Source of the DNA: Flavobacteria bacterium RIFCSPLOWO2_12_FULL_35_11
GTDB taxonomy: Bacteria > Bacteroidota > Bacteroidia > Flavobacteriales > Flavobacteriaceae
Direction of reading: 5' to 3'
Assembly: GCA_001800975.1 (NCBI GenBank)
Contig: MGWK01000011.1
Location: 1-64,000 of the forward strand
Length of the DNA: 64,000 nucleotides
Shown: in pieces, positions 24,680-52,346 of the stretch
Position numbering within the stretch: the first letter of the stretch is position 1
Layout: each line of letters opens with the position of its first letter
Notes under the pieces: model-generated
What the model was told of the DNA's origin: nothing
The model's input: only the letters and a program-made list of their open reading frames with translations
Databases searched by the model: none
Position numbers and translations under genes: made by a program

Positions 24680-24764
24680 GGTTGGGCGTTCCTTCGGTCG
24701 GGTCTTCACTACTCGCTTCCCGAAAAATCGGGAGAGCTCAAACATGTCGTTCAATCCCTAACGC
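24680..24764 (-). repeat. Modular hairpin repeat (family A), copy 1
   Basis: Short copy between convergent genes. Read on the minus strand it opens GCGTTAGGGATTGAACG, has a hairpin CCCGA-TTTT-TCGGG, then GCGAGTAGTGAAG and CCCGACCG, and ends at AACGCCC. The second hairpin is shortened. Confidence 0.8.
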
Positions 24765-24770
24765 AAAAAA

Positions 24771-26711
24771 TCATCTTCTTATCAAGCTTAAATTTCCGCG
24801 TTTTTCTCGGTATTCGCCATATTGATCTGTATACGTCACCAAGTACCAATAATCAGTTGCCGGAAGCCTTTCTCCATTGTAAAATCCGTCCCAGCCATCG
24901 CCATTCAAATCAACATCAGCAACCAATTTACCAAATCGATCGAAGATATAAATAGCCGATATTCGGATGCTGTTTAAGTCATTTCCAAGCACTTTCCATG
25001 TGTCGTTTTGTCCATCGCCATTGGGCGTAAAAAATTTGGGAAACCCTAAAATTGCGATGTCCAATTTAGAAATGCCACAGTTGGTTTTGTCTCGCAAATA
25101 CAGAAAGTGAATTCCTGGTTCTAAATGTTCAAAAGAGGTCCCGTCCTGAAATTCATCAAAACGATCAAGATTAAACTCATAATTGCTGATATTCGGAAAA
25201 ATATTAATCATAATTGAGTTGTTATCAGAATCATCAACGACAGTAAGATTGTTCAAATTTATCGGAGAAGTTGCAGAAACGGTATTTCCCAAAACTTCCA
25301 ATTTCACCTCCGTTCTGGTTGGCGTTGTGCACCCGTTTTCGGTGGCATCAATATAATAAGTTGTTTTTGTGGATGTTGGCGTTGTTGTAAAGGAACTTCC
25401 TGTTTCAAAAGGAAATCCGCCAGTTGGCGTGGCGTACCAGTTAATTGTTGCGGTTGCTGATGATGCAGTGGCATTCAATGTTCCTGAATTTCCTTCACAA
25501 ATAGTAACGTTTGGCGCTGATATTATGGACGGAATAACATTAACTGTAGCAATTACTGGCGTTCTTTTTCCCGTAACACAGCCATTTTCCGATGCCAAAA
25601 CATAGTAAGTTGTGGTTGCCGAAAGAATCGGTGTTGGAAAATTTGGCCCCGAATGTAATGGTGTTGTGCTGGTTGAAGAATCAAACCATAAAACGGTTGC
25701 GCCTAAAGTTGCAGTTGCCGATAAGTTAAAAGTTCCTACACCGCATCGCGTTGCCGGTGTTGTTGCAGTTATTGCAGCCACAGAAATTGTTGTGCTTTCC
25801 GGAAGTTTCAAAACGGGATCACCAAGCGTTCCTCCATATTCAACAATGTAACCTTTGGGCTGATAATCGCCCGTGGCTGCACCAGTATTGCTTAAATCGT
25901 TCCAGGAACCTGGTTTGCCAACACCGGGAGCGGTGACGTGGGCATAATCTTCATCTCCGGCTTGATTAGGTTCACCACTATTCCAAAAGGCAAAATTTGG
26001 TGTTGAGCCATTTATTCCACCATTCCAAAAAACGGTGCCGTTTTCCGGACCTGTAACCCATTTCCAAGTTCCTTCAGAAGCTGCGTCACTTCCGCCAATC
26101 CAGCCTGCGCCTGCAGCTTGTTCCCCGGAAAGTTTTGCTTCTTCCGCAGAGGTAATGGTCGCCAAATAGCCCTTTAATCCATAATAAGTTCTCGCTTCGG
26201 CAGCAGTTTTTGCATTTTGCCAAGTAATTCCTACATCAGAAACATATTCATAAAAATGGCCTGTTGATGGCAGGTAATTGGCATCTCCAATGGTGAATGA
26301 AAATTTTTTTTCGCCCGAAACGGTTGGTGAACTGCTTTCAAAAACGACATCCTTAACAGCGGCGACAATATCTATATAAGTTGCAGTTGCCGAAAGGGAA
26401 CTTTTCAAGGTTAATTTTCCTTCAGAAGCATTCCAAGAGGCTGTAATATTGGGATGAATTCCCGAAGGAAGAGTTAATTTGTCTTCTCCGTTTTTATATC
26501 CTTCAGAAACCTGAATGTAAAAAGCAGCGACTGTTGTGTCGTCCGGGTCGGTAATATTAAAAGAAGTAACCACTTTCATTTGGGTCAAGGGACAATAAAT
26601 TTGATCTCCGCTTGCTGAAATGTTAGGTGCAATATTTTGTGACCAGCAGTAATTTGTAAAAAACAAGGCCAACAGGGAAAAAAACAAGATGCTATGTTTT
26701 TTGAACGGCAT
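24771..26711 (-). CDS. Type IX-secreted C-type lectin-like protein with type B sorting domain
   Basis: Exported cell-surface or released protein of 646 residues. It has a signal peptide (about 1-25), a beta-sandwich region (30-145), and a C-type lectin-like domain (about 155-275) with AGWIGGSDAASEGTWKW, FWNSGEPNQ and WNDL. Ig-like/PKD-like repeats of about 75-80 residues follow (310-465; cysteine pairs and GNSGTLNATASS). The C-terminal gliding-motility-type sorting domain (about 555-646) contains FFTPNGDGQNDTWK, IYIFDRFGKL, GWDGFYNGERLPATDYWY and a final KRGNLSLIRR. The type B domain directs secretion through T9SS. It is likely to bind glycans or be an adhesin; no enzyme domain is present. 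Confidence 0.9.
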   Translation of the reverse strand: MPFKKHSILFFSLLALFFTNYCWSQNIAPNISASGDQIYCPLTQMKVVTSFNITDPDDTTVAAFYIQVSEGYKNGEDKLTLPSGIHPNITASWNASEGKLTLKSSLSATATYIDIVAAVKDVVFESSSPTVSGEKKFSFTIGDANYLPSTGHFYEYVSDVGITWQNAKTAAEARTYYGLKGYLATITSAEEAKLSGEQAAGAGWIGGSDAASEGTWKWVTGPENGTVFWNGGINGSTPNFAFWNSGEPNQAGDEDYAHVTAPGVGKPGSWNDLSNTGAATGDYQPKGYIVEYGGTLGDPVLKLPESTTISVAAITATTPATRCGVGTFNLSATATLGATVLWFDSSTSTTPLHSGPNFPTPILSATTTYYVLASENGCVTGKRTPVIATVNVIPSIISAPNVTICEGNSGTLNATASSATATINWYATPTGGFPFETGSSFTTTPTSTKTTYYIDATENGCTTPTRTEVKLEVLGNTVSATSPINLNNLTVVDDSDNNSIMINIFPNISNYEFNLDRFDEFQDGTSFEHLEPGIHFLYLRDKTNCGISKLDIAILGFPKFFTPNGDGQNDTWKVLGNDLNSIRISAIYIFDRFGKLVADVDLNGDGWDGFYNGERLPATDYWYLVTYTDQYGEYREKRGNLSLIRR

Positions 26712-26844
26712 GAAGAATGGGTAATTTTTATTAAGATGTAAAAATAAGCAATAGTTTTTAAGGGGAAAGCTTGTTTTAGTTAAAAAAAATTGAATTAATT
26801 ACTTAAAAATTAATAGTTAACAGTGGTGCGGAAGACGTAGCTTA

Positions 26845-27312
26845 CTATTTTTTCCAAATAATTTTTACCGCTGATAAATGCTCCAGCTCCAAGTGAATTT
26901 CAGGCAATTTATGAAATCCATTTTTTAGGTAAAACGGAACAGGTGATTTATAGCCATCACCATTTTGTTTTAAATAATCGGTTTTGTCAATTACCCAACC
27001 GTTAAGTTCCGATTCCCTTTTTTTGGCTTCATTCAATAACATGGTTCCAAAACCTTTTACGTGAATTTCGGAAGCTAAAATCATGGCGAACCACTTTTCA
27101 GTATTCCTGTCAAAATCAAAATACCAACCTTTTATAGCGCCATTTTTGTTGATTAAAAGCATGTGATGCTGGTTAGCTAATGCATTTAAATAATTTTCAA
27201 AATCAGAAAGGCTTTTGTGTGTCAAATTTTTTGGATATTCAGCATTCCAAAGTTCAAAAACTACTTTTATTTGAGAATTGTCAAGGCAATTTGTTATTAT
27301 TATTTTAATCAT
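26845..27312 (-). CDS. GNAT-family N-acetyltransferase
   Basis: Protein of 155 residues with the GNAT fold. The acetyl-CoA-binding region reads VKGFGTMLLNEAKKRE (about residues 89-104), close to the Q/RxxGxG/A consensus. The C-terminal half, with YKSPVPFYLKNGFHKLPE, matches the common ...FYxKnGF motif of these enzymes. The substrate is unknown. It is the downstream neighbour of the CDF transporter (38-base gap, same strand). The short gap suggests, but does not prove, co-transcription. Confidence 0.86.
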   Translation of the reverse strand: MIKIIITNCLDNSQIKVVFELWNAEYPKNLTHKSLSDFENYLNALANQHHMLLINKNGAIKGWYFDFDRNTEKWFAMILASEIHVKGFGTMLLNEAKKRESELNGWVIDKTDYLKQNGDGYKSPVPFYLKNGFHKLPEIHLELEHLSAVKIIWKK

Positions 27313-27350
27313 ATAATAATTGATATTGGATTAATGTTACCAACTTTAAA

Positions 27351-28226
27351 CTAAATTGTATCCGGTTCAATATGAATTAAAACATCATTTATTTCTGGCA
27401 ATTTCTGCAACAATTCATCCTTTAATCGATGCGCTATTTTATGTCCTTCTGAAACACTAATTGCTCCGTTTACAATTAAATGAAGATCTACATGAAATGA
27501 AATTCCAGCCTTTCTCACCAGGCATTTTTCTGTATCAATTACCCCTTCAACACCCACAGAAATCGTTCTAATTTCTGATACCAAATCGTCATATAAATGT
27601 TCGTCCATAATTTCGCCGAGTGCCGGTCTAAAAATTAAGTAGGCATTGTAAATAATGAATCCAGAAGCAAATAAAGCCGCCCAGTCATCGGCTTTTTCAT
27701 AGCCTTCACCCATAAAAATGGCAATAGATATTCCAATAAACGCCATTAACGACGTAATTGCATCACTCCTGTGGTGCCAGGCATCTGCTTTTAGAGAAGA
27801 GCTTTTTGTCTCATTGCTTTTTTTGGATACTACCCTAAAAAACAATTCTTTTATCACCACAATTATAGCCAAAACCACCAGTGTATATTTTTTAGGGGCT
27901 ATTTGTGGCGTTTGCAGATTCTGGATACTTTCATAAGCAATGATGGTTGCGGATAAAACCAGAAATCCAACCACGGCAAACGTAATTAAAGGCTCTGCCC
28001 TTCCATGGCCATAGGGATGATTGCCATCGGCTGGTTTTGTGGCATATTTTAGTCCAAACAAAACTAAGATGGAAGAAAAAACATCGGTGGTAGATTCAAT
28101 AGCATCAGCGATTAATGCGTAAGAATTTCCAAAAATTCCGGTAATTCCTTTGGCAATGGCAAGCAAAGCATTGCCAACAATGCTGAAATAGATGGTGTTA
28201 ATTGCTTTTTGTTTGTTCGTTTTCAT
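27351..28226 (-). CDS. Cation diffusion facilitator transporter
   Basis: Inner-membrane divalent metal/proton antiporter, probably for zinc, iron, manganese or cobalt; 291 residues from the ATG at 28226. About six membrane helices are seen. The paired metal-site motifs are in helix 2 (ADAIESTTDVFS) and helix 5 (DAWHHRSDAITS), giving a DxxxD and an HxxxD pattern. HPYGHGRAEPL, the conserved loop, lies between. The cytosolic C-terminal domain ends LIHIEPDTI. An upstream in-frame TTG at 28250 is a weaker start. Confidence 0.93.
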   Translation of the reverse strand: MKTNKQKAINTIYFSIVGNALLAIAKGITGIFGNSYALIADAIESTTDVFSSILVLFGLKYATKPADGNHPYGHGRAEPLITFAVVGFLVLSATIIAYESIQNLQTPQIAPKKYTLVVLAIIVVIKELFFRVVSKKSNETKSSSLKADAWHHRSDAITSLMAFIGISIAIFMGEGYEKADDWAALFASGFIIYNAYLIFRPALGEIMDEHLYDDLVSEIRTISVGVEGVIDTEKCLVRKAGISFHVDLHLIVNGAISVSEGHKIAHRLKDELLQKLPEINDVLIHIEPDTI

Positions 28227-28382
28227 TTTTGTTGAGGTGTTCAAATTCAATTTGAAATGCCCTATTTTTAGCGGGTAAAGATAAGGATTTCATCAAGTAT
28301 CATTTAGATTAAATTAAATAAATACATATGATAACAGCAATTTATTATATGAATTATGCAATTATAATGTTGAATTTTATTT

Positions 28383-28476
28383 GCATTAGGGATTGAAGTG
28401 AAAATCCTTATTAACGGTTTTTCACCGTTAATAAGATTGAAACGTAAAGCCTGGTCGCTTTTTCAGCGGAATGCCC
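28383..28476 (+). repeat. Modular hairpin repeat (family A), degenerate copy 2
   Basis: Opens GCATTAGGGATTGAAG, then a perfect 12-bp stem (CTTATTAACGGT / ACCGTTAATAAG, 28407-28435) with loop TTTTC. A second small hairpin CGCT-TTTTC-AGCG and a terminal AATGCCC follow. It is followed at 28489-28515 by another short hairpin motif (TGCCT/AGGCA then AGTTTTCAAC). Confidence 0.75.
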
Positions 28477-28516
28477 AAATTTTAAATCTGCCTCCGGAAG
28501 GCAAGTTTTCAACCTA

Positions 28517-29581
28517 CTAAAACCACTTTTTCTTTTTAAAATAGAAAATCATGGAAACTGCCAAAATCAGCATAACGCCCAACATCATAAAGTAACCATA
28601 TTTTAAATGAAGCTCAGGAAGATAGTCGAAATTGGTTCCGTAAACACCGGCAATAAAGGTTAACGGAATAAAAATTACAGAGAAAACGGTTAAAAATTTA
28701 ATAATGTCATTCAGCTTGCTGCTTATGGTGGTGTGATAAACCTGAAGTTGGTCGGCAAGAATTTCACGATAGCTTTCCAATGACTCAATGGCCTGGTTAA
28801 CATTGTTTTTTAGATCTTCAAAATTTACAAAAACTTTATCCTCCAATAATTCCGAATCCAATTTTAACAGTTCAACCACTATTTCACGGCAGGGTTTAAT
28901 GGATTTGTTTAAATAAATAATTTCCTTCTTAAAATTGTTGATTTCCTTTAGGGTAGATTCCTTTGCATTGTTCAGCAAATATATTTCCAGCGATTCAATT
29001 TTTTCGCCAATTTGGCTTATGATATAATTATAATTGTCAAAAACAATGTCCATTAAAGCAAAAGCCAAATAATCGGTCCTGGCGCTTCGAATTCTTTTTT
29101 TGTTTTTCCGCATTCGTTCTCTTATGGGATCGAAAATGTCGCCTGTTTTTTCCTGGAATAACAGTAAAATATGTTCTTTAATAATAATTACAATATTTTC
29201 AGAAGAAATGAAATTTCGTTTTTCATCATACTGCAACATTTTTAAAGAAATATAGAGGCAATTGTCATATTCCTGAATTTTTGGACGCGCATGGGTATTC
29301 ATGACATCGGCAAGAATTAGTGGATCCAACTCAAATTTGCTTGCAATCTCATCCATAATTTTTACATCATGCAAACCATAAATATTGAGCCAGGTGGTGG
29401 TGGCCGTTTTGTTGAATTTCACCACCTCATTTACATCTTTTGCTATAAATTCATCAAGATTTTCAGAATCGTAATCAATAACTTCCAAAATAACATCCTC
29501 ACTTTTTTTCTCGCCTTTAAAATGGATTTCATAGGGCGACAATCCTAAATGTTCTTTTTTTGTTTTTAAATACCTGGCCAT
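28517..29581 (-). CDS. corA: CorA-type magnesium/cobalt transporter
   Basis: Pentameric channel of 354 residues. The N-terminal cytosolic domain (about 1-240) includes MNTHARPKIQEYDNCLYISL and a long helix. Two C-terminal membrane helices follow (about 295-315 and 330-350). The loop signature after the first helix reads YGTNF (about 313-317) where most CorA proteins have YGMNF; the codons are TAC GGA ACC AAT TTC. The family is clear, but the Met-to-Thr change in the GMN selectivity motif could alter ion preference. It is alone, with the CDF transporter about 290 bases downstream. Confidence 0.9.
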   Translation of the reverse strand: MARYLKTKKEHLGLSPYEIHFKGEKKSEDVILEVIDYDSENLDEFIAKDVNEVVKFNKTATTTWLNIYGLHDVKIMDEIASKFELDPLILADVMNTHARPKIQEYDNCLYISLKMLQYDEKRNFISSENIVIIIKEHILLLFQEKTGDIFDPIRERMRKNKKRIRSARTDYLAFALMDIVFDNYNYIISQIGEKIESLEIYLLNNAKESTLKEINNFKKEIIYLNKSIKPCREIVVELLKLDSELLEDKVFVNFEDLKNNVNQAIESLESYREILADQLQVYHTTISSKLNDIIKFLTVFSVIFIPLTFIAGVYGTNFDYLPELHLKYGYFMMLGVMLILAVSMIFYFKKKKWF

Positions 29582-29724
29582 ATTTATTTGAAATTATTAA
29601 AGGGTTTACAAACTTTTTACAAGCTGAAATCTATCTGACTTTCAAAAAAAGAAAGCGATTAAAATTAGTCAATTTTGTTTTAAAGTGCTCATTTTATTGC
29701 ATGAAATCAATTTACGGAGTTGCG

Positions 29725-31248
29725 CTATTTTTTTCTTAATTCATAAAGATCTTTACGTCTTTCTTTCAAATTTCTGACGGTTCCCAGTTGATTTAATTCT
29801 CTTAGGGAATCAATATCCACATCGGCAATTAAAATCATTTCAGTATTGGCAGTTGCTTCGGCTTTAATACCGTTGGTTGGAAAGGCAAAATCACAAGGCG
29901 TAAACACCACGGATTGCGCATATTGTATGTCCATATTGTGGACTTTCGGCAAATTTCCAACGCTTCCGGCAATGGCAACATAGCATTCGTTTTCTATGGC
30001 TCTTGCCTGCGCGCAATTTCGAATCCTTGAATAGCCATTTTGCGTGTCTGTTAAAAATGGGACAAACAATATGTCCATTCCTTCATCGGCCAAAAGCCTT
30101 CCAAGCTCTGGAAATTCGACATCATAACATATCAAAATACCTATTTTTCCAGAATCGGTATCAAATGTCTGAATTTTGCTTCCGCCTTGCATTCCCCATA
30201 CATTGGCTTCATTTGGCGTGATATGCAATTTTTCAAAACGTTCTACTGTTCCATCTCTTTTGCACAAATACCCAACATTGTACAATTTAGCATCAACCAT
30301 TTCAGGCATACTTCCTGTAATGATATTGATATTGTAAGAAATGGCAAATTTTGAAAATTTATCAACTATGGCTGAAGTATGTTTTGCAAGTTCCCGGATG
30401 GCTTCAGACTCTGTTAAATGGTTATTTTCAGCCATTAAAGGGGCATTAAAAAATTCAGGAAAAAGCGCAAAATCAGACCGATATCCAGAAACCGAATCAA
30501 CAAAAAATTCAGCTTGCTGCAGCAATTCATCTAAATTTTTATAAGCCCTCATTTGCCATTGTATAAGTCCGAGACGCACTATTTTTTTCTTGGTGGTGGC
30601 TGAACTTAGGTCTTCTTCTTCATAGTAAATATTGTCCCATTCCAACAGCACCGCATAATCATTGGATGCCTTATCGCCTTCAAGATAATTTTTTAGGATT
30701 TTTGCCGGGTGAAAATCATTTGAGATCTGAAAATTAAATACAGGGTCATGAATCTCCTTTTTCTTCACTTTATCAATATATTCTTTTGGGGTAAGTTTAT
30801 CGGAATACAAGTGATAATTGGGAATTCTGCCGCCAAAAGCAACGCCTCTAAGGTTTAGTTTCTCACACAATTCTTTCCTGTAATCATAAAGTCGCCTACC
30901 CAAACGAAGTCCGCGGAATTCAGGTTTAATAAAAACATCAATGCCATACAACATATCACCATCAGGGTTATGGGTGTTAAATGTATAATTTCCAGTAATT
31001 TGCTTGTAAGTATGAACCCTTTCAACCCTGCTATAATCCACCATAATGGACAATGCGCAACCGGCAATTTGATTGTTTACTTTTATAACAACCTGGCCTT
31101 CAGGGAATCGGCTAATAAGCGATTCCATTTGGCGTTCACTCCAAAAAGCATCGGGAATACCGATGTAGGATTCAATCATCGCTTTTTTAAGTTCCTGATA
31201 ATCGTCGATGCTTAAAAAAGACAATTCAATATTTTCTATTTTTTTCAT
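29725..31248 (-). CDS. GNAT acetyltransferase-carbon-nitrogen hydrolase fusion
   Basis: Bifunctional protein of 507 residues from the ATG at 31248. Residues 1-200 form a GNAT domain (acetyl-CoA loop GLRLGRRLYDYRKE). Residues 215-505 form a nitrilase-superfamily amidohydrolase with the catalytic triad visible: Glu near 264 (LFPEFF), Lys near 339 (EKLHITPNE), and Cys near 373 (ILICYDVEFPE). Such fusions are known in Bacteroidota and other bacteria; the substrate is not established. The two domains probably act on a common amide or amine. An upstream in-frame TTG at 31281 is rejected in favour of the ATG. Confidence 0.93.
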   Translation of the reverse strand: MKKIENIELSFLSIDDYQELKKAMIESYIGIPDAFWSERQMESLISRFPEGQVVIKVNNQIAGCALSIMVDYSRVERVHTYKQITGNYTFNTHNPDGDMLYGIDVFIKPEFRGLRLGRRLYDYRKELCEKLNLRGVAFGGRIPNYHLYSDKLTPKEYIDKVKKKEIHDPVFNFQISNDFHPAKILKNYLEGDKASNDYAVLLEWDNIYYEEEDLSSATTKKKIVRLGLIQWQMRAYKNLDELLQQAEFFVDSVSGYRSDFALFPEFFNAPLMAENNHLTESEAIRELAKHTSAIVDKFSKFAISYNINIITGSMPEMVDAKLYNVGYLCKRDGTVERFEKLHITPNEANVWGMQGGSKIQTFDTDSGKIGILICYDVEFPELGRLLADEGMDILFVPFLTDTQNGYSRIRNCAQARAIENECYVAIAGSVGNLPKVHNMDIQYAQSVVFTPCDFAFPTNGIKAEATANTEMILIADVDIDSLRELNQLGTVRNLKERRKDLYELRKK

Positions 31249-31365
31249 ATTTGAAGGGAGGATTTGCTGCTGTTTGCACAAAAGAAAATCATAAACAGCC
31301 TATTTTGGTAAAAATACGATTTTTTGGGAGATGATTAATATTGAGAATGAGGATTTTAAATGTTT

Positions 31366-31482
31366 TGGGCCTGCCCGCCTTTTTGGTGGGCGTTCCCGCT
31401 AAAAAGCGGTCGGGCTTTCCGCTGTAAGTCCTCGTCACGCCCAAAAGCGTGTCTGTGGGCTTTACGCTTCAATCCCTAACGC
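31366..31482 (-). repeat. Modular hairpin repeat (family A), copy 3
   Basis: Full copy between tRNA-Ala and the fusion gene. On the minus strand it opens GCGTTAGGGATTGAAGCG and has hairpin CACGC-TTTTGG-GCGTG. It continues with AAAGCCCGACCGC, hairpin CCGCT-TTTT-AGCGG and AACGCCCACC, ending in GGCGGGCAGGCCC. Confidence 0.85.
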
Positions 31483-31498
31483 GAATTCAAATAAAAAT

Positions 31499-31530
31499 TA
31501 AAAAACCGCCTCAGTTATGAGACGGTTTTT
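31499..31530 (-). terminator. Terminator after tRNA-Ala
   Basis: Hairpin with arms AAAAACCGcCTC / GAGaCGGTTTTT (one mismatch) and T/A tails on both sides, immediately downstream of the tRNA on the minus strand. Confidence 0.8.
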
Positions 31531-31534
31531 TAAA

Positions 31535-31609
31535 GTGGAGAAGATCGGGCTCGAACCGACGACCTCTTGGCTGCCAGCCAAGCGCTCTAGCCAACTGAGC
31601 TACATCCCC
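31535..31609 (-). tRNA. tRNA-Ala (anticodon GGC)
   Basis: Cloverleaf on the minus strand. D arm GTAGCTCAGTTGG; anticodon stem CTTGG/CCAAG with loop CTGGCAG (anticodon GGC); T stem GTCGG/CCGAT with loop TTCGAGC; discriminator A. The G3:U70 wobble pair, the main alanine identity element, is present. Acceptor position 6-67 is a T-T mismatch as I fold it. CCA is not encoded. Confidence 0.95.
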
Positions 31610-31870: not shown

Positions 31871-31878
31871 TAAATTTG
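31871..31878 (+). promoter_or_regulatory. Bacteroidota -7 element for osmC-like gene
   Basis: TAAATTTG fits TAnnTTTG, 19 bases before the ATG at 31898. Confidence 0.5.
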
Positions 31879-31897
31879 TAATAAATAATAAAAAATC

Positions 31898-36299: not shown

Positions 36300-36388
36300 T
36301 TGATTTTAATTTTCATTTCTGTTGGTGAATTTGTAATTATTTACCTTTTTTTGATAAGATATAATGATTATAAATAGCAATTCAATTT

Positions 36389-36498
36389 GCGTTAGTGATA
36401 GCAGCGACATACTTTTTTGAAATGCAATGAAAAAAAAGATATAGCGGATAGCGCGACCTGAAAGGAAACGCCCACCGAAAAGGCGGTCAGGCTCAAAA
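36389..36498 (+). repeat. Modular hairpin repeat (family A), divergent copy 4
   Basis: Opens GCGTTAGTGATAGCAGCGACAT, then an A-rich middle, GATAGCGCGACC, GGAAACGCCCACC and GGCGGTCAGGCTC. The flanks are recognisable but the first hairpin is decayed. A GTTTAATCG-type repeat (36504-36527) follows directly. Confidence 0.6.
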
Positions 36499-45145: not shown

Positions 45146-45655
45146 TTAATTGTTGCTTTTAAAAAGCGGTACGGTAGAGCAGGCTTCGCCAAACATAATG
45201 GATTTTACCACCGGCTGTAATTTTTCAATCAGTTGAATATAAGCGGTTTCCGGAATTGGTTTGTTGGAGCAGCCTTTGATAATTACAGGTTTTCCTGCAA
45301 AATCTTTCACCTCAAAATGCGCGATGATGTCCTGAAAAATGGAAGTTTCCAAGGCGGCCAAATTTCCGACCACAATTTTTTTGGCAAAAGGAGAAACATA
45401 GGTGGTAATCAGCATATAGGCCCAAGAAGGAATAATGGCGTCAGAAGAACAAGATAATGCAACATATTCATCTTTGTACTGGCACCAATCGTGGTTTTTC
45501 AGGTGTTCCCTAAAATCGGTTTCTTTCAAAATTTGTTCGTGAAACAGCCAGTTTTTAATGTCTATGACCCTTCTTGTGCCTTTCGGATAAAAATCTTCCA
45601 GGTCAATTGTTTTCAACTTGCTGTTCGCAACCCTATTTACAATTTCATCAGCCAT
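45146..45655 (-). CDS. DUF2480-family protein
   Basis: Protein of 169 residues of the Bacteroidota DUF2480 family; biochemical role unknown. It is cytosolic, with no membrane segment. Residues 30-60 read WLFHEQILKETDFREHLKNHDW, and conserved Cys-containing stretches (LSCSSDAIIP, IKGCSNKPIP, EACSTVPL) are present. The ATG directly abuts the stop of the preceding DUF59 gene (TAAATG), so the two are translationally coupled. Its placement with DUF59 and SufE links it to iron-sulfur cluster work, an inference from context. Confidence 0.88.
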   Translation of the reverse strand: MADEIVNRVANSKLKTIDLEDFYPKGTRRVIDIKNWLFHEQILKETDFREHLKNHDWCQYKDEYVALSCSSDAIIPSWAYMLITTYVSPFAKKIVVGNLAALETSIFQDIIAHFEVKDFAGKPVIIKGCSNKPIPETAYIQLIEKLQPVVKSIMFGEACSTVPLFKSNN

Positions 45656-45976
45656 TTATAGAAACCCGAGTTCTAATTTTGCTTCTTCACTCATCATATC
45701 CTGCGTCCACATTGGGTCAAAAGTAATTTCAACTTCGGCATTTTTAACTTCCTCAATGGTTTTTACTTTTTCCTCAACTTCCACAGGCAATGTTTCTGCA
45801 ACGGGACAATTGGGTGAAGTTAGGGTCATTAATATTTTAACGTCGTTGTTTTCACTCACAAAAACGTCATAAATTAAACCCAATTCAAATATATCAACAG
45901 GAATTTCAGGATCGTAAATAGTTTTTAGTTTCGCAACTATTTTATCGCCAAGTTCTTGTGCGTGTGTGCTGTTCAT
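45656..45976 (-). CDS. DUF59/MIP18-family iron-sulfur assembly protein
   Basis: Protein of 106 residues with the compact MIP18/SufT-type domain used in Fe-S cluster maturation. It shows VDIFELGLIYDV and the conserved cysteine motif TSPNCPVAETLP, the family's signature core. The stop codon adjoins the DUF2480 start. A TAnnTTTG element lies about 40 bases upstream. The neighbouring SufE supports an assembly or carrier role for clusters; SufBCDS are not in this window. Confidence 0.93.
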   Translation of the reverse strand: MNSTHAQELGDKIVAKLKTIYDPEIPVDIFELGLIYDVFVSENNDVKILMTLTSPNCPVAETLPVEVEEKVKTIEEVKNAEVEITFDPMWTQDMMSEEAKLELGFL

Positions 45977-46013
45977 TTTAAAAGCCTTTCTTTATATTCA
46001 TTCTAAATAAGGG

Positions 46014-46021
46014 CAAATATA
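46014..46021 (-). promoter_or_regulatory. Bacteroidota -7 element for the DUF59 gene
   Basis: TATATTTG on the minus strand, 37 bases before the ATG. Confidence 0.5.
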
Positions 46022-46081
46022 CAATTATTTACCTATTCGCGTAACTATTTACGGCTAATTTCTCATCTCTTCAATAGAATA

Positions 46082-46199
46082 TTTTGGGCCTGCCCGCCTG
46101 TTTGGTGGGTGTTCCCGCCTTTTCGGCGGTCGGGCTTTTGTGGCTCGCTTCCCGTAAAAAAAACGGGAGAGCTCAAACAAACCACGCAATCCCTAACAC
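46082..46199 (-). repeat. Modular hairpin repeat (family A), copy 5
   Basis: Full copy within the 418-base gap between the DUF59 and SufE genes. On the minus strand: GTGTTAGGGATTG, hairpin CCCGT-(T)n-ACGGG, GAAGCGAG, AAAGCCCGACCG, hairpin CCGCC-GAAAA-GGCGG, AACACCCACC and GGCGGGCAGGCCC. The rest of the gap holds a REP-type pair and a CTTC repeat. Confidence 0.85.
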
Positions 46200-46257
46200 A
46201 AATTGAGTTGGAAAGTTAATGATGCGTAATATTGGTTTTTTTAGCTGAATTTCCTAA

Positions 46258-46330
46258 GCTAGCGCGAGCTTCCAGCTCGTGACTGCGTGATTAGAGTTAA
46301 CAAAAGCACAAGCGAGACGCTCGCGCTAGC
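46258..46330. repeat. REP-type inverted pair (REPIN-like)
   Basis: GCTAGCGCGAGC (46258-46269) and its exact reverse complement GCTCGCGCTAGC (46319-46330) bracket a 49-base spacer. The pairing continues imperfectly inwards, about 20 of 24 positions. Arms of this kind occur in many genomes next to REP-associated transposase genes; none is in the window. Confidence 0.75.
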
Positions 46331-46347
46331 AGATGATTTTTTTGATA

Positions 46348-46392
46348 CTTTCGTCTTCGGACTTCCCTCTTCCGTCTCCGGACTTCCGTCTT
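46348..46392. repeat. CTTC-type dispersed repeat, copy 2
   Basis: A run of TTCGTCTTCGGACTTCC and TTCCGTCTCCGGACTTCC-like units directly after the REP pair and just before the SufE stop. Confidence 0.6.
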
Positions 46393-46394
46393 TT

Positions 46395-46817
46395 TTAACT
46401 CATTTTCGACTGAAAAGCCAGCGCGTACAATTTTATTTGTTTAATCATGGAGACCAATCCGTTGGCGCGCGTTGGCGACAAATGTTCTTTCAGGCCAATT
46501 TTATCCACAAAATACAAATCGGCATCCAAAATATCTTTAGGTTTTTGGTTGTTGAAAACGCGTAACAATAGCGCCACAATTCCTTTGGTTAAAATGGCAT
46601 CGCTGTCGGCCGTAAATTTAATTTTGTCGCCTTCAATTTCAGAATGCAGCCATACTTTTGATTGGCAGCCCGAAATTAAATTTGAATCGGTTTTAAATTC
46701 ATCCTTAATCATTGGTAATGATTTTCCCAGTTCAATCATATATTCATAACGTTCCATCCAATCTTCAAACATGGAAAACTCGTCTATAATTTCTTCTTGT
46801 ATTTCTTTGATAGTCAT
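46395..46817 (-). CDS. sufE: SufE-family sulfur acceptor
   Basis: Accepts persulfide sulfur from cysteine desulfurase SufS for Fe-S cluster assembly. Its 140 residues match E. coli SufE (138). The active-site cysteine is in LISGCQSKVWL (near residue 50), and EDWMERYEYMIELGKSLP and the C-terminal GLVSMIKQIK are family features. A TAnnTTTG element lies about 20 bases upstream. The DUF59 and DUF2480 genes lie downstream in the same direction across a repeat-filled gap. Confidence 0.95.
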   Translation of the reverse strand: MTIKEIQEEIIDEFSMFEDWMERYEYMIELGKSLPMIKDEFKTDSNLISGCQSKVWLHSEIEGDKIKFTADSDAILTKGIVALLLRVFNNQKPKDILDADLYFVDKIGLKEHLSPTRANGLVSMIKQIKLYALAFQSKMS

Positions 46818-46835
46818 TTTTTAAACTTATTTTTG

Positions 46836-46843
46836 CAAAAGTA
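46836..46843 (-). promoter_or_regulatory. Bacteroidota -7 element for sufE
   Basis: TACTTTTG on the minus strand, 18 bases before the ATG. Confidence 0.5.
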
Positions 46844-46915
46844 AACACATGGTTTCTCTAAAAAAAATATTAGACAAATTAATCCCGTGCAACAGTGTGC
46901 TAACTACCGTAAAAT

Positions 46916-47842
46916 ATGAGTAAATTATTAATTATAGGAACCGTTGCTTTTGACGCCATTGAAACGCCGTTTGGAAAAACGGACAAGATTTTAGGAGGTT
47001 CCGCAACCTATATTTCCCTTTCTGCAGCACAATTTGGCATTTATTCAGGAATTGTTTCTGTAGTTGGAGGTGATTTTCCGAAGAAATATTTAGAAAAATT
47101 AAATCTGAAAAACATCAATACCGATGGCATTGAAATTATTGAGGATGAAAAAACATTTTTTTGGAGCGGCAAATACCACAACGATTTAAATTCGAGAGAT
47201 ACCTTAATTACCGATTTAAACGTATTGGCAAATTTTAGGCCTGTTGTTCCGGATAATTTTACGGATACCGATTATTTAATTTTAGGAAATTTACATCCGG
47301 CCGTTCAAATGTCAGTCATCAAACAAATTCCTGTTCGCCCAAAATTGGTGGTGTTGGACACAATGAATTTTTGGATGGACAATACCTGGAACGAGTTGAT
47401 GGAAGTGATTGCAAAAATAGATGTGATTACCATCAATGATGAAGAAGCGCGCCAGCTTTCCGGAGAATATTCTTTGGTAAAAGCGGCTCAAAAAATTCAG
47501 GAAATGGGACCAAAATATGTGGTGATAAAAAAAGGCGAACACGGCGCTTTGTTGTTTAACGGCGACAATGTGTTTTTTGCGCCTGCATTGCCTTTGGAAG
47601 AAGTTTTTGATCCAACCGGAGCAGGAGACACTTTTGCGGGCGGATTTATTGGCCATATTACCAAAACAGGAGATATTTCTTTTGAAAATATGAAACGCGC
47701 AGTGATTGCAGGCTCAAACCTGGCTTCATTTTGTGTAGAGAAATTTGGCACCGAACGCATGGAAAATTTGACGCACCCGGAAATACAAAAACGATTATTA
47801 CAATTTAAACAATTAACCCAATTTGAAATTGAATTAGGTTAA
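46916..47842 (+). CDS. PfkB-family carbohydrate kinase
   Basis: Ribokinase-fold sugar or nucleoside kinase of 308 residues. The N-terminal substrate motif reads GGSATYISLSAAQFG (about 27-41). The C-terminal PfkB motif is DPTGAGDTFAGGFIG, with the catalytic Asp within GAGD. Substrate preference is not evident; candidates include ribose, adenosine and 2-keto-sugars. It is upstream of purF, but a perfect terminator lies between them. Confidence 0.9.
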   Translation: MSKLLIIGTVAFDAIETPFGKTDKILGGSATYISLSAAQFGIYSGIVSVVGGDFPKKYLEKLNLKNINTDGIEIIEDEKTFFWSGKYHNDLNSRDTLITDLNVLANFRPVVPDNFTDTDYLILGNLHPAVQMSVIKQIPVRPKLVVLDTMNFWMDNTWNELMEVIAKIDVITINDEEARQLSGEYSLVKAAQKIQEMGPKYVVIKKGEHGALLFNGDNVFFAPALPLEEVFDPTGAGDTFAGGFIGHITKTGDISFENMKRAVIAGSNLASFCVEKFGTERMENLTHPEIQKRLLQFKQLTQFEIELG

Positions 47843-47845
47843 AAT

Positions 47846-47872
47846 GAATTCCGCACGCGTGCGGAATTTTTT
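47846..47872 (+). terminator. Terminator after the PfkB kinase
   Basis: A perfect 22-base palindrome AATTCCGCACG / CGTGCGGAATT (47847-47868) followed by T run, at the end of the pfkB-family gene. Confidence 0.85.
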
Positions 47873-47899
47873 ATTTGAATCACAATTAATGCTACTACT

Positions 47900-49801
47900 A
47901 TGAGCGACGCTATTAAACACGAATGTGGAATTGCAATGGTTAGAATGTTAAAACCATTACAATATTATAAAGACAAATACGGAACGGCGTTTTATGGCTT
48001 AAACAAAATGTATTTGTTGATGGAAAAACAGCACAATCGCGGTCAGGATGGTGCAGGTTTGGCAAGCATAAAATTTAACGTGCCTCCAGGAACACGGTAT
48101 ATTAGCCGTATCCGCTCCAATGAAGATCAGCCGATTCAAGATATTTTCGACCAAATTAACGGCCGATTAAACAATTTAAATATTGAATTTCCCGATAAAA
48201 TTGACGATGTGGAATGGCAACTGAACAATGCGCCATATATTGGAAATCTGTATTTGGGACATGTGCGTTACGGTACTTTTGGAAAAAACAGCATTGAAAG
48301 TGTTCACCCATTTTTGCGCCAAAGCAACTGGATGCACAAATGTTTAATTGTTGCCGGAAATTTCAACATGACCAATTCTAAGCGCTTGTTTAACGACTTG
48401 GTTGAAATAGGGCAGCACCCGAAAGAAATGACCGATACGGTGACCGTGATGGAAAAAATAGGTCATTTTATCGATGATGAAGTGGCCAAGTTGTACGAAA
48501 AAATTAAAAAGGAATTTGGCGTTACCAAAAAGGAAGCTTCTCCTATGATTGAGGAACGCATCAATATTAAAAAAATCTTAAAAAGATCGGCAAAAAATTG
48601 GGACGGCGGCTATGCAATGGCGGGTTTATTGGGTCACGGCGATGCATTTGTATTGCGCGATCCATCAGGAATCAGGCCTGCATTTTATTATGCTGATGAC
48701 GAGTTTGTGGTGGTTGCCTCGGAACGCCCTGCCATTCAAACTGTTTTTAATGTGGCTATAGAAGATGTTAAGGAAATTGAAAGAGGCCATGCCTTAATCA
48801 TAAAACGAAGCGGTAAAATTTCCATGGCTAAAATTAAGGAGCAACTGCCAAATAAGGCCTGTTCTTTTGAACGCATTTATTTCTCTAGGGGAAGTGATGC
48901 TGATATTTATATTGAGCGTAAAAATTTAGGGAAATTGGTTTTTCCGCAAATTGTGGAGAAAATAAAAGGCGATATCAGAAACACGGTTTTCTCCTACATT
49001 CCAAATACTGCGGAAACTTCTTTTTACGGTTTGCGCGAAGCTGCCGTAGATTTTTTGAATGTTCAAAAAACAGACGCTATTTTAAAAGGCCGACGCAGTT
49101 TGTCGGCTGAAAAAGTGACTGAAATATTGGCAGAAATGCCACGTATTGAAAAACTTGCCATTAAAGACGCGAAACTGCGAACTTTTATTGCCGATGACAC
49201 CAGCAGAGACGATTTGGTGGCGCATATTTACGACGTTACTTATGGCATTGTAAAACCAACCGACAATTTGGTGATTATTGATGACAGCATTGTGCGCGGA
49301 ACAACCTTAAAGAAAAGCATTATAAGAATTTTGGATCGATTGCATCCTAAAAAAATCATTGTTGTCTCCTCGGCGCCGCAAATCCGTTACCCTGATTGTT
49401 ACGGAATTGATATGGCAAAATTGGGCGATTTTATTGCTTTTAGAGCCGCTTTGGAATTGTTGAAAGAAACAAACCAGTACCATATTGTGCAGGAAGTTTA
49501 TAACAACTGCAAAAGCCAACAACCTTTGGAAGACACGGAAATTAAAAACGCCGTATTGGAAATTTACAGGAACTTTAGCGATGAACAAATTTCCGATAAA
49601 ATTGCCGAAATGTTAAAAACACCGGAAATTAATGCAGAAGTTGAAATCATATTTCAGTCGGTTGAAAATTTACACATTGCTTGTCCAAACCATTTGGGCG
49701 ATTGGTATTTTACGGGTGATTATCCAACTCCCGGCGGAAACCGCGTGGTAAACGATGCTTTCATTAATTTTTATGAAGGAAGCGACAAAAGGGCGTACTA
49801 A
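47900..49801 (+). CDS. purF: Amidophosphoribosyltransferase
   Basis: First committed enzyme of purine synthesis: PRPP plus glutamine to phosphoribosylamine. The 633 residues fit the long Bacteroidota form (E. coli PurF 505). The N-terminal glutamine amidotransferase domain has Cys9 in HECGIAM as nucleophile after propeptide removal, with HNRGQDGAGLAS and YLGHVRYGT. The phosphoribosyltransferase domain has the PRPP motif NLVIIDDSIVRGTTLKKSI, and the C-terminal extension contains IACPNHLGDWYFTGDYPTPGG. No pur operon partner is adjacent. Confidence 0.93.
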   Translation: MSDAIKHECGIAMVRMLKPLQYYKDKYGTAFYGLNKMYLLMEKQHNRGQDGAGLASIKFNVPPGTRYISRIRSNEDQPIQDIFDQINGRLNNLNIEFPDKIDDVEWQLNNAPYIGNLYLGHVRYGTFGKNSIESVHPFLRQSNWMHKCLIVAGNFNMTNSKRLFNDLVEIGQHPKEMTDTVTVMEKIGHFIDDEVAKLYEKIKKEFGVTKKEASPMIEERINIKKILKRSAKNWDGGYAMAGLLGHGDAFVLRDPSGIRPAFYYADDEFVVVASERPAIQTVFNVAIEDVKEIERGHALIIKRSGKISMAKIKEQLPNKACSFERIYFSRGSDADIYIERKNLGKLVFPQIVEKIKGDIRNTVFSYIPNTAETSFYGLREAAVDFLNVQKTDAILKGRRSLSAEKVTEILAEMPRIEKLAIKDAKLRTFIADDTSRDDLVAHIYDVTYGIVKPTDNLVIIDDSIVRGTTLKKSIIRILDRLHPKKIIVVSSAPQIRYPDCYGIDMAKLGDFIAFRAALELLKETNQYHIVQEVYNNCKSQQPLEDTEIKNAVLEIYRNFSDEQISDKIAEMLKTPEINAEVEIIFQSVENLHIACPNHLGDWYFTGDYPTPGGNRVVNDAFINFYEGSDKRAY

Positions 49802-49816
49802 AAAAAGTAAAAATAT

Positions 49817-49847
49817 AGTCCGAAGACGGAAGTCAGAAGACAGAGGG
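49817..49847. repeat. CTTC-type dispersed repeat, copy 3 (inverted)
   Basis: AGTCCGAAGACGGAAGTC... reads as the reverse complement of the motif at 20056 and 46348. It lies just after purF. Confidence 0.6.
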
Positions 49848-49978
49848 TTAAGGTGAAATTTTAAGTTTATTTCAAGACCAACTATTTTCATATATTTAGC
49901 ATTGGTTTAAAAACTTATTGCCAAATTGGCGATTCAGTTTTCAAGGAACAATAATATAACAGCTTCAACACCTCTATT

Positions 49979-52180
49979 TTGAAAGATATTTTACTGATTA
50001 CGCCTCCTTTTACGCAATTAAATACGCCTTATCCCGCCACGGCATATTTGAAAGGGTTTTTGAATACAAAAGGCATCAGTTCTTTTCAAATGGATTTGGG
50101 CATTGAGGTGATTTTAGAACTTTTTTCCAAAGAAAGTTTAAAAAAACTATTCGATTTTGCTTTTGAAAATGATAAGATTGTCCCTGAAAATGCACAGCGA
50201 ATTTATGCCTTGAAAGCCGATTATTTAAAAACCATTGGTGATGTCATTGGATTTTTGCAGGGAAAAAACCAAACGATTGCAAGGCAAATTTGCACGTCAA
50301 ATTTTCTCCCGGAAGCTTCGCGGTTTTCTGAACTTGATGAGTTGGAATGGGCTTTTGGAAATATGGGAATTCAGGACAAGGCAAAACATTTGGCAACCTT
50401 ATACCTCGAAGATTTATCCGATTTTATCGTGGAATGCATTGACGAAAATTTTGGTTTTAGCCGTTATGCCGAAAGATTGGGACAAAGCGCCAATGACTTT
50501 AATGGTCTGCACGAAAATCTGCAACATGAAATTACCGTTATTGATGCAATTTCGCTGAAAATTCTGGATGCAACCTTAAAGGAAATTCAACCAAAACTGG
50601 TTTGTTTTTCGGTGCCGTTTCCCGGGAATTTGTACAGCGCTTTTAGGTGTGCGCAGTTCATTAAAAAAAACCATCCTGAGATTAAAGTGGCGATGGGAGG
50701 CGGCTTTCCAAACACGGAATTAAGAAGCGTTACGGATGTTCGTGTTTTCGACTTTTTCGATTTTATTACCTTGGATGACGGCGAATTGCCGGTTGAATTG
50801 TTGCTGTCGAATGTGTTGCATCCTTTGGCGGACAATCCCGATTTTAAGCAGTTCAAAAGAACTTTTTTGAAGGAAAACGGAAAAGTGGTTTACAACAATT
50901 TGTCCATTAAAAATGATTACAAACAAGCTTACGTTGGCACGCCGGATTATGCCGATTTGTTGCTCAGCGAATATATTTCCGTCATAGAAATTGCCAATCC
51001 GATGCACAGTTTGTGGAGCGACGGCCGTTGGAACAAACTTACGATGGCGCACGGCTGTTATTGGGGAAAATGCACTTTTTGCGATATTTCTCTCGATTAC
51101 ATTAAAATATACGAACCAATCGCCGCAAAAATGTTGGTGGACCGCATTGAAGAAATGATTGCGCAAACCGGCGAAAAAGGATTTCATTTTGTGGATGAAG
51201 CCGCGCCTCCGGCCCTGATGCGGGCGTTAGCGATTGAGATTATCAGACGGAAAATCACGGTGACTTGGTGGACGAATATTCGTTTTGAGAAAAGTTTTAC
51301 CAAAGACCTTTGTGTTTTGTTGAAAGAATCGGGCTGCATAGCTGTTTCTGGCGGGTTGGAAGTGGCTTCTGACCGATTGCTGGAGCTGATTAAAAAAGGC
51401 GTAACGTTGGAGCAAGTGGCGCAGGTGACCAACAGTTTCACCAATGCCGGCATTATGGTTCACGCCTATTTAATGTACGGTTTTCCAACACAAACGGTTC
51501 AGGAAACGGTTGACAGTTTGGAAATGGTGCGGCAATTGTTTGAACTGGGCACTATAAAATCGGGATTTTGGCATCAGTTTGCGTTGACAACCCACAGTCC
51601 GATTGGTTTAAATCCAGCTGAATACGGCATTTTTCCCGACTACAAGGAAATCACTTTTGCCAACAACGACATTCAGTTTAAGGACAAAACAGGCATTAAC
51701 CACGATAAATTTAGTTTTGGGCTAAAAAAATCGATCTTCAATTTTATGCACGGCGTTGGCTTTGAATTGCCGCTGCAGGATTGGTTCGATTTTAAAATTC
51801 CGAAAACCAGCATCAAAAATGATTTTATGCAAAAATGCCTGGAAGCTGAGCCGTATTTTATGGTAAAACCTTCGGCTAAAATTATTTGGCTTGGAGGAAA
51901 ACCATTGGTTTTAGAACAAACAAAATCTAAAAAGGGAAAATCGAAACAACAACTTCAGCTCACTTTTCACGATAAAAATGACAGCTTTCAGGTGCAAATG
52001 GAAAAAGAAAACGGCGAATGGTTTTTGACTATGCTGGAACGTTTGTCCGTTTACCATAACGAACAGCTTACTTTTTCTGCTTTAAAAGCAGACTACGAAA
52101 CCCATTTTGGCGATTTCGAATTGTTTTGGTATTCCAAACCCATCAACAGTTTACGGGCGCACGGATTGCTGGTGTTATAA
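49979..52180 (+). CDS. B12-binding-type radical SAM protein
   Basis: Radical SAM enzyme of 733 residues beginning with a TTG codon (KDILLITPPFTQLNTPYP follows). The N-terminal part (about 1-290) resembles a cobalamin-binding Rossmann domain, as in the B12-radical SAM class: VAMGGGFPNTELRS and a conserved FFDFITLDDGE. The 4Fe-4S ligands are Cys360, Cys365 and Cys368 in HGCYWGKCTFCD, spacing CX4CX2C instead of the usual CX3CX2C. VSGGLEVASDRLLELIKKG follows (SAM-binding). The substrate is unknown. No other upstream ATG is in frame. It is alone, with a family A repeat downstream. Confidence 0.9.
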   Translation: MKDILLITPPFTQLNTPYPATAYLKGFLNTKGISSFQMDLGIEVILELFSKESLKKLFDFAFENDKIVPENAQRIYALKADYLKTIGDVIGFLQGKNQTIARQICTSNFLPEASRFSELDELEWAFGNMGIQDKAKHLATLYLEDLSDFIVECIDENFGFSRYAERLGQSANDFNGLHENLQHEITVIDAISLKILDATLKEIQPKLVCFSVPFPGNLYSAFRCAQFIKKNHPEIKVAMGGGFPNTELRSVTDVRVFDFFDFITLDDGELPVELLLSNVLHPLADNPDFKQFKRTFLKENGKVVYNNLSIKNDYKQAYVGTPDYADLLLSEYISVIEIANPMHSLWSDGRWNKLTMAHGCYWGKCTFCDISLDYIKIYEPIAAKMLVDRIEEMIAQTGEKGFHFVDEAAPPALMRALAIEIIRRKITVTWWTNIRFEKSFTKDLCVLLKESGCIAVSGGLEVASDRLLELIKKGVTLEQVAQVTNSFTNAGIMVHAYLMYGFPTQTVQETVDSLEMVRQLFELGTIKSGFWHQFALTTHSPIGLNPAEYGIFPDYKEITFANNDIQFKDKTGINHDKFSFGLKKSIFNFMHGVGFELPLQDWFDFKIPKTSIKNDFMQKCLEAEPYFMVKPSAKIIWLGGKPLVLEQTKSKKGKSKQQLQLTFHDKNDSFQVQMEKENGEWFLTMLERLSVYHNEQLTFSALKADYETHFGDFELFWYSKPINSLRAHGLLVL

Positions 52181-52220
52181 GTGATTTCTGTTTTTAAATT
52201 TTTCATTATTAATTCAAACC

Positions 52221-52346
52221 GCGTTAGGGATTGAACGGCATGTTTGAGCTATTTTTTGGATGCTTTTCGCAGCCAAAAAAAGCGAGTAGTGAAAGCCCGA
52301 CCGCCTTTTCGGCGGGAACGCCCACCGAAATGGCGGGCTGGCCCAA
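52221..52346 (+). repeat. Modular hairpin repeat (family A), copy 6
   Basis: Plus-strand copy between convergent genes: GCGTTAGGGATTGAACGGCAT, a long hairpin (TTTTTTGG...CCAAAAAA with inner TGC-TTTTC-GCA), GCGAGTAGTGAAAGCCCG, hairpin CCGCC-TTTTC-GGCGG, AACGCCCACC and GGCGGGCTGGCCC. Confidence 0.9.

What the first reader, a model, noticed from the sequence alone, without database searches (positions are those of the whole stretch)
24680..52346. Modular structured intergenic repeat with covarying, swappable hairpins (six copies)
Copies at 24680-24764, 28383-28476, 31366-31482, 36389-36498, 46082-46199 and 52221-52346 share GCGTTAGGGATTGAA, AGCCCGACCG, GGAACGCCCACC and GGCGGGCAGGCCC blocks. Between them lie hairpins whose stems differ but remain paired: CCGCC/GGCGG, CCGCT/AGCGG, CCCGA/TCGGG, CCCGT/ACGGG, CACGC/GCGTG. 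Several loops read TTTTC, and one reads the complement GAAAA. Pairing kept while sequence changes is what selection on a structured RNA or DNA would produce. The copies are always intergenic, at gene 3' ends or between same-strand genes. This is the strongest undescribed-looking element here. I cannot tell whether it is already catalogued, for example as a flavobacterial RNA motif such as Flavo-1.
Basis: seen in the sequence. Interest (0 to 1): 0.75.

Follow-up and report, generated by a model that had tools for sequence, protein, structure and literature searches.

The report
Modular three-way-junction repeat with swappable arms
The six repeats belong to one family of small folded elements with a fixed three-armed core and exchangeable hairpins, found between genes in flavobacteria and in phages, and the catalogued 'Flavo-1 RNA' is only one arm variant of it.

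Summary
All six copies are present and intergenic, and their stems covary. Two of six pass Rfam's Flavo-1 cut-off, but Flavo-1 describes only one arm of a larger element. The full unit is a three-way junction: closing helix GCGTT/AACGC, a long arm on GGG/CCC, and a small hairpin after GACC. At least four arm kinds fit the same socket.

Covariation is strong in 83 distinct copies from 32 genomes, and was confirmed by viral-contig scans in which the pairing letters were left free. Between related genomes the element stays at the same site and strand, yet 7 of 15 shared sites hold more than one arm kind. One hairpin tip is nearly fixed in four related genomes. Same-genus genomes carry 0-65 Flavo-1 hits. 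Fold quality does not depend on the strand of neighbouring genes. No transposase link was seen, and the two copies scanned hold no terminator. The same core, mostly with other arms, occurs in phage contigs, 10 of 46 directly behind a terminase large-subunit gene.

Best reading: a non-autonomous element, also carried by phages, whose core fold is recognised in trans and whose arms are exchanged by recombination. Function and partner are not shown.

The parts
24680..24764 (-). Copy 1, core 24684-24764: closing helix GCGTT/AACGC, arm B (GTTTGAGCT..hairpin..AGCGAGTAGTG), P3 tip CCGAAGG
   Evidence: the flanking acyltransferase and Ig/CHU_C T9SS-signal genes converge on it
28383..28476 (+). Copy 2: closing helix GCATT/AATGC (compensated), arm A = Flavo-1, P3 CGCTTTTTCAGCG
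   Evidence: RF01705 57.1 bits, gathering 42; antisense to the cation-efflux and CorA genes
31388..31482 (-). Copy 3 core: arm C (AAAGCCCACAG..GCGTGACGAGGACTT), P3 CCGCTTTTTAGCGG
   Evidence: Flavo-1 only 30.7 bits, below cut-off
31366..31387 (-). Tail hairpin half of copy 3 (ACC..GGCGGGCAGGCCC)
   Evidence: in the predicted folds it pairs on itself on this strand and with the P3 half as one long hairpin on the other strand
36389..36473 (+). Copy 4 core: arm A variant, P3 CCTGAAAGG
   Evidence: RF01705 42.9 bits; orthologous site filled in relatives
36474..36498 (+). Tail hairpin half of copy 4
46107..46199 (-). Copy 5 core: closing helix GTGTT/AACAC (compensated), arm B with GTGG/CCAC, between sufE and an Fe-S assembly gene
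   Evidence: arm A at the same site in G029 and G002, no element in G033
46082..46106 (-). Tail hairpin half of copy 5
   Evidence: long-hairpin fold with the P3 half
52221..52323 (+). Copy 6 core: arm B, P3 CCGCCTTTTCGGCGG
   Evidence: between convergent genes
52324..52346 (+). Tail hairpin half of copy 6, pairing with P3 as one long hairpin in the predicted fold of either strand

Best explanation
SHOWN: one family of short intergenic elements whose constant part is a three-way junction (closing helix, foot of the long arm, small hairpin) and whose long arm and hairpin tips are interchangeable. The Rfam family Flavo-1 is one of the arms. The element stays at the same place and strand over species splits while the arm differs between species, its number per genome varies widely, and the same core is found in phage contigs. 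INFERRED: the core fold is what matters. It is recognised in trans, as single-stranded DNA or as an RNA of its own, by a host or phage factor that spreads or uses the element, and it does not act as part of the neighbouring messenger RNA. Arms and tips are tolerated spacers, exchanged between copies by recombination at the short conserved blocks (gene conversion), which also homogenises tips within a lineage. Phages are a likely carrier between hosts. The partner protein is unknown.
For: Structure: RNAalifold on 25 copies, mostly from low-copy genomes, gives the three-way junction unprompted: 24 pairs, 14 with both sides changed. 83 distinct copies from 32 genomes are 97.6% paired against 83.5% shuffled; slid partners pair in 27-46% (rerun). 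Scans of viral contigs with the pairing letters left free: GC 43, CG 2, TA 1 of 46 distinct elements; partner T for GCATT in the one case found; outer three closing pairs fully complementary in 21 of 23, including GGG/CCC and GAA/TTC. Exchange: 15 sites shared by two or more genomes, 7 with more than one arm kind (labels curated by eye, the script said 8); arm A against B in G010 and G005 with 132 of 135 identical bases directly upstream. In 247 flank comparisons (repeats of the same pair included, 50 without a detected copy) none was inverted. Tip GCC..GGC in 29 of 32 copies of four related genomes against 7 of 90 elsewhere; the string CGCCAGCTGGCG lay inside elements in 10 of 11 places on six long contigs. 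Independence from transcription: sense tandem 32, antisense tandem 25, convergent 23, divergent 27, far 4 in high-copy genomes; arm pairing 93-97% in all four contexts. Phage carriage.
Against: No clean empty site with target duplication in three comparisons. No transposase link seen: the RAYT-type gene in L090 has its own different repeats. Low-copy genomes keep the element at the same sites with compensating changes, which looks like a local function rather than selfish spread. There sense outnumbers antisense 17 to 4, p = 0.007, though by my reading these are only three sense and three antisense site families. In the G010/G005 case the 135 bases downstream align poorly, 92 of 169 columns. 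In only 22 of 46 phage elements does the arm alone, folded by energy, close on GNG/CNC. DNA or RNA is undecided. Conversion over 10-15 shared bases is short for RecA (recalled).
Confidence: 0.45

Rival explanations
1. Cis-acting RNA: the element works inside the messenger of its neighbours as a leader or intercistronic structure (processing, stability or attenuation).
For: In low-copy genomes it is held in sense in metH-metF, hypB-hypC and an efflux operon and upstream of dusB, and upstream of rarA in G021 and G000, with compensating changes at the same site. Sense 17 v antisense 4 there. G.A loops and a slight G-U excess favour the element's own strand.
Against: No excess of sense copies in high-copy genomes (32 v 25, p 0.43); antisense copies fold as well as sense ones; antisense placement is itself conserved before an aldehyde dehydrogenase gene in three genomes; the F. 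psychrophilum study reports Flavo-1 hits in sense and antisense of transcripts and many outside them, though several coincide with 5' regions (PMC9723704, passages seen).
Confidence: 0.22
2. Stand-alone small RNA or catalytic RNA: a conserved junction with variable arms, as in small ribozymes, expressed from its own promoter.
For: The junction letters recur with free arms in viral loci of 27 to 63% G+C (the search patterns fixed most of these letters). The GCATT and GTGTT forms of the closing helix gave 1 and 0 stretches against 55 for GCGTT.
Against: The passages seen of PMC9723704 give no support for regular transcription; at gathering thresholds no family other than Flavo-1 matched the elements; no promoter was shown.
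Confidence: 0.12
3. Transcription terminator or insulator palindrome working on both strands.
For: Often close behind stop codons; in phage loci 10 of 46 sit 0-16 bases behind the terminase large-subunit stop, where two other phage records, L431 and L435, have ordinary hairpins (read by eye).
Against: No terminator-like site falls on copies 46082 or 52221; the junction is not followed by a T run on either strand in the copies read; 27 of 111 placed copies lie between divergent genes.
Confidence: 0.12
4. Member of the REP/RAYT (Y1 transposase) repeat class.
For: Intergenic palindromes, mosaic build, and RAYT-sized Y1 genes in the genome.
Against: The RAYT-type gene in L090 is flanked by another repeat, CGCTGGCGCGAGCGTCCCGCTCGTGC; the element is far longer and branched. 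Three of the six Y1 hits are cut by contig ends, so their flanks could not be read.
Confidence: 0.07

Closest known systems
Flavo-1 RNA, Rfam RF01705 (Weinberg 2010, PMC2864571; only table passages seen)
   Same: Arm A of the element: foot helix, 3x3 loops with G.A closure, T-run stem; 33 hits over cut-off in this genome.
   Different: The Rfam model has neither the closing helix nor the small hairpin and misses other arms: 5 of 10 loci of the order scan and 3 of 16 phage loci reach its cut-off. In L092, L097 and L101, from other families of the order, the ends read AGC..GCT and no small hairpin is seen (read by eye).
REP / BIME palindromic repeats, GTAG and CGTC families (PMC3733652, abstract and passages seen)
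   Same: Intergenic, many copies, heterogeneous; copy number varies between relatives.
   Different: 20-40 bp palindromes with an unpaired tag; here about 75-170 bases, a three-way junction, and sites kept over species with arm replacement.
Streptococcal BOX and enterobacterial ERIC repeats (recalled, no call)
   Same: Longer modular or insert-bearing intergenic palindromes found in both orientations.
   Different: Other sequence and phyla (recalled); not compared here.
phi29 packaging RNA and hammerhead ribozymes (recalled, no call)
   Same: Three-way junctions with conserved joints; some link to phage packaging genes.
   Different: No Rfam match other than Flavo-1 on the phage loci searched; a resemblance of layout only.

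Membership tests
Flavo-1 RF01705 | Score at or above gathering cut-off (42 bits) | tested here: met
   Met by 2 of 6 window copies (57.1 and 42.9 bits); 31366 scores 30.7; the other three have no hit up to E 1
Flavo-1 RF01705 | Model covers the whole element | tested here: not met
   Model ends are unpaired; closing helix and small hairpin lie outside it
REP/RAYT | Transposase gene flanked by the same repeat | tested here: not met
   Six Y1 hits in G000. ORFs listed for all six loci, flanking sequence printed for L089 and L090 only; L090 is flanked by another repeat, L089 ends at the contig end. So tested for one gene
REP/RAYT | GTAG or CGTC tag at the hairpin foot | not tested
   A GTAG occurs inside arm B, not tested as a tag
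MITE / DNA transposon | Target-site duplication at empty/filled sites | tested here: inconclusive
   Three comparisons, no clean insertion and no duplication seen
Intrinsic terminator | G+C stem followed by a T run | tested here: not met
   None on copies 46082 and 52221; the other four copies were not scanned
Cis-regulatory RNA | Sense orientation to the regulated gene | tested here: inconclusive
   32 sense v 25 antisense in high-copy genomes, p 0.43; 17 v 4 in low-copy genomes, p 0.007, but few independent sites
Self-cleaving ribozyme | Cleavage activity | not testable with these tools
   Needs a bench assay

The most novel reading that the evidence does not exclude
A wide-ranging class of phage- and chromosome-borne three-way-junction elements, of which Flavo-1 is one arm variant. 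The junction is the active part (a catalytic or packaging-linked RNA, or a single-stranded DNA signal), the arms are rewritten in place from copy to copy, and phages move it, often at the end of the terminase gene.
Probability: 0.2. Interest if true: 0.9.

Novelty: new variant of a known kind. Interest (0 to 1): 0.66.

Why it matters
Flavo-1 is listed among the most abundant small-RNA families in a 2022 review, with no function given (PMC9029176, passages seen). If it is one arm of a modular element that is indifferent to transcription of its neighbours and is shared with phages, its annotation as a small RNA should be reconsidered. The family also offers a natural experiment: at the same site, different species hold different arms on the same junction. 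That makes the mechanism of in-place exchange between short dispersed repeats, and the role of the constant junction, directly testable.

Tried and rejected
Considered and rejected or left open: RAYT/REP membership; a reverse-transcriptase link (one RVT_1 hit; only the ORFs of its locus were listed); generic mobile mini-palindromes as the source of tips (CGCCAGCTGGCG lay inside elements in 10 of 11 places on six long contigs); integron attC likeness (recalled, not tested); intrinsic terminator (two copies). One window copy by BLAST against phage records and another against plasmid records gave no match. Stretches of six phage records (4.3-6.6 kb each) beside terminase homologues showed no copy. 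The search for a precise insertion point failed. Closeness to terminase within 1 kb is weak evidence: 18 of 46 against a random mean of 12.7 and maximum of 19 in 2000 placements; only direct abutment to TerL stands out, 10 against a mean of 1.1 and maximum of 5, and those phages are related to one another. The automatic arm classifier mislabelled some copies, so 7 of 15 is curated by eye, where the script said 8. Relaxed detection gave false copies inside genes, so the context counts were redone with the strict detector: high-copy counts unchanged, low-copy sense 19 became 17. Paper searches by sequence string or topic showed nothing on the larger element in their listings (one search listed 20 of 57 papers, one search listed 8 of 9). 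Searches listed the Flavo-1 papers used.

Full report
WHAT IS THERE. All six copies were read directly. The window belongs to contig C11 of a 3.56 Mb genome in 98 contigs. One of its proteins (633 residues) is nearest to Lutibacter, 86% identical. Rfam finds Flavo-1 (RF01705) over its cut-off at 28375-28460 and 36384-36462, and below it at 31404-31496. In the whole genome 33 places pass the cut-off and 46 have E of at most 0.001; 0 of 14 control genomes pass the cut-off, though 10 of 14 have matches up to E 10.

ANATOMY. Reading 123 copies side by side gives one plan. The element begins GCGTT, has one unpaired A, then the foot of a long arm, GGG (partner CCC). After the arm come GA and a small hairpin opened by CC. 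The element closes with AACGC, followed by CC and usually A-rich DNA. RNAalifold on 25 copies (2 from the window, 22 from other genomes of the genus, 1 from another family of the order) gives this three-way junction without being told: 24 pairs, 14 with changes on both sides. Single window copies do not all fold this way by energy alone, and both strands fold well. The arm socket holds kind A (Flavo-1, with two 3x3 loops closed by G.A pairs), B (GTTTGAGC..GCGAGTAGTG), C (AAAGCCC..GAGGACTT) or D (another genomic repeat). Extra small hairpins may be added on the 5' side. An exact arm-B pattern occurs in 22 of 38 genomes of the genus and in none with the pattern reversed. Four of six window copies carry a tail hairpin half that can pair with the small hairpin into one long stem instead.

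COVARIATION. Over 83 distinct A-type copies from 32 genomes and 16 pairs, 97.6% of cells pair against 83.5% in shuffles. 190 cells are changed on both sides (shuffle mean 58, maximum 73 and 77 in the rerun), and slid partners pair in 27-46%. Shuffles do not remove relatedness, so I added tests that the detector cannot shape. Viral contigs were scanned with both letters of one pair left free: 55 stretches, and among 46 distinct elements the pair was GC 43, CG 2, TA 1. A scan for GCATT with the partner letter free found one element, and the partner was the predicted T; the GTGTT scan found none. With the outer three closing pairs left free, 23 distinct elements gave 21 fully complementary, among them GGG/CCC and GAA/TTC; six of the 23 come from loci first fetched by this scan. 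G-U outnumber A-C mispairs 18 to 8 (p = 0.076), so the folding strand is suggested, not proven.

EXCHANGE IN PLACE. The same-genus genomes compared here are 79.5-94.2% identical to one another in this region, one of them (G033) 72-78%. They hold the element at the same intergenic sites. Of 15 sites shared by two or more genomes, 7 carry more than one arm kind (labels curated by eye, the script said 8). At site 31366 the window has arm C, G029 and G010 arm B, and G022, G005 and G006 arm A. At site 28383 G010 has A and G005 has B, although 132 of the 135 bases upstream agree; the 135 downstream agree less, 92 of 169 aligned columns. In 247 flank-pair comparisons, repeats included and 50 of them without a detected copy, no copy was inverted. 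Some 'not detected' cases are detector misses: G015 and G029 at site 36389 hold divergent copies. The small-hairpin tip GCC..GGC fills 29 of 32 copies in G001, G005, G010 and G022 but 7 of 90 elsewhere (copies at shared sites are not independent), and the string CGCCAGCTGGCG lay inside elements in 10 of 11 places on six long contigs. I read this as concerted change among dispersed copies.

LOCAL CONSERVATION. Of 37 same-genus genomes, 36 have at least one Flavo-1 hit, from 1 to 65. Many low-copy genomes keep the element at the same few sites: metH-metF (8 genomes), hypB-hypC (4), an efflux adaptor-permease gap (6 here, more, absent in others there), upstream of dusB (3) (gene names read from protein ends, recalled). 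Two further sites include a high-copy genome each: upstream of rarA (G021 and G000) and, antisense, before an aldehyde dehydrogenase gene (G018, G035, G020). At rarA the closing helix is GCATT/AATGC in one species and GCGTT/AACGC in the other. These sites argue for a local use that I cannot name.

INDIFFERENCE TO TRANSCRIPTION. In genomes I classed as high-copy (13 contributing), 111 of 112 copies could be placed: 32 sense and 25 antisense between same-strand genes, 23 between convergent, 27 between divergent genes, 4 far from a gene. In low-copy genomes 29 copies gave 17 sense, 4 antisense, 6 divergent, 1 convergent, 1 far; the sense excess (p = 0.007) rests on about three site families. Arm pairing is 95.0% in sense, 96.3% antisense, 93.0% convergent and 96.8% divergent copies, and G.A loop closure 93-97%. 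No terminator-like site falls on the two copies scanned. The F. psychrophilum transcriptome paper found Flavo-1 hits in sense and antisense of transcripts, many outside them, several in 5' regions (PMC9723704, passages).

PHAGES AND RANGE. An exact 3' block pattern occurs in 17 of 296 genomes of the order (6 of 91 genera) and in none with the pattern reversed. Ten such loci show arms A, C and others on the same core, and 5 of 10 reach the Flavo-1 cut-off. In viral contigs exact patterns gave 10, 24 and 55 stretches, partly the same. The 46 distinct elements of the third pattern lie in loci of 27 to 63% G+C; the small hairpin folds in 44 of 46, but the arm alone closes on its foot by energy in only 22 of 46; arms were A 6, C 5, a further kind 13, other 22. 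One lies between capsid and prohead-protease genes (L365). Ten of 46 directly follow, on the opposite strand, the stop codon of homologous proteins. Eight of these were aligned, 26-42% identical to the first; three of eight match the terminase large-subunit profile weakly, and relatives of one in two Microcystis phages are annotated as terminase large subunit. Random intergenic placement gives a mean of 1.1 and a maximum of 5. Their arms differ (A, C, others), so exchange at one site seems to occur there too. Viral status of the other contigs was not checked beyond the collection they come from.

HOW IT MAY WORK. The fixed part is the junction; arms and tips are free as long as they pair. Since fold quality does not depend on the strand of neighbouring genes, the element most likely acts as a folded strand recognised in trans rather than inside a neighbour's messenger. 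Recombination between copies over the short constant blocks would swap arms and homogenise tips. Phages are a plausible vehicle. Open: the partner, RNA or DNA, and the use at conserved sites.

COMPARISON AND VERDICT. Flavo-1 is part of this element, so the kind is known. The closing helix, small hairpin, alternative arms, in-place exchange and phage copies were not seen in the listings of the paper searches made nor in the passages read; whole papers were not read. I rate it a new variant of a known kind.

Noticed in passing
L090 1426-1974 (G000 C71); window about 46290-46350: A RAYT-type Y1 transposase gene is flanked by inverted repeats of CGCTGGCGCGAGCGTCCCGCTCGTGC; a similar repeat lies beside copy 46082 in the window.
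   Followed up: partly
L086 (G000 C77:6118-6438): A Y1_Tnp domain (PF01797) sits inside a 1258-residue open frame that looks like a DNA methylase/restriction protein (name from recall).
   Followed up: no
L318, L237 and other relatives of the window sites: Mini-repeats CCCTTCGGCT..GCTCAGGGTAAACT and CCCGATAGCTATCGGG are found nested inside arms or hairpin tips of the element; a variant of the first also lies beside the tRNA gene at the 31366 site in relatives.
   Followed up: partly
L016 (G000 C9), copies at 794 and 1509: Two inverted copies about 600 bases apart enclose a 115-residue ORF; next to them lies an ORF that resembles a homing-endonuclease-type protein (from recall).
   Followed up: no
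L396, L400, L409, L410, L414, L416, L428: Phage contigs, several closely related, carry the element 61-132 bases upstream of a terminase small-subunit homologue on the same strand.
   Followed up: partly
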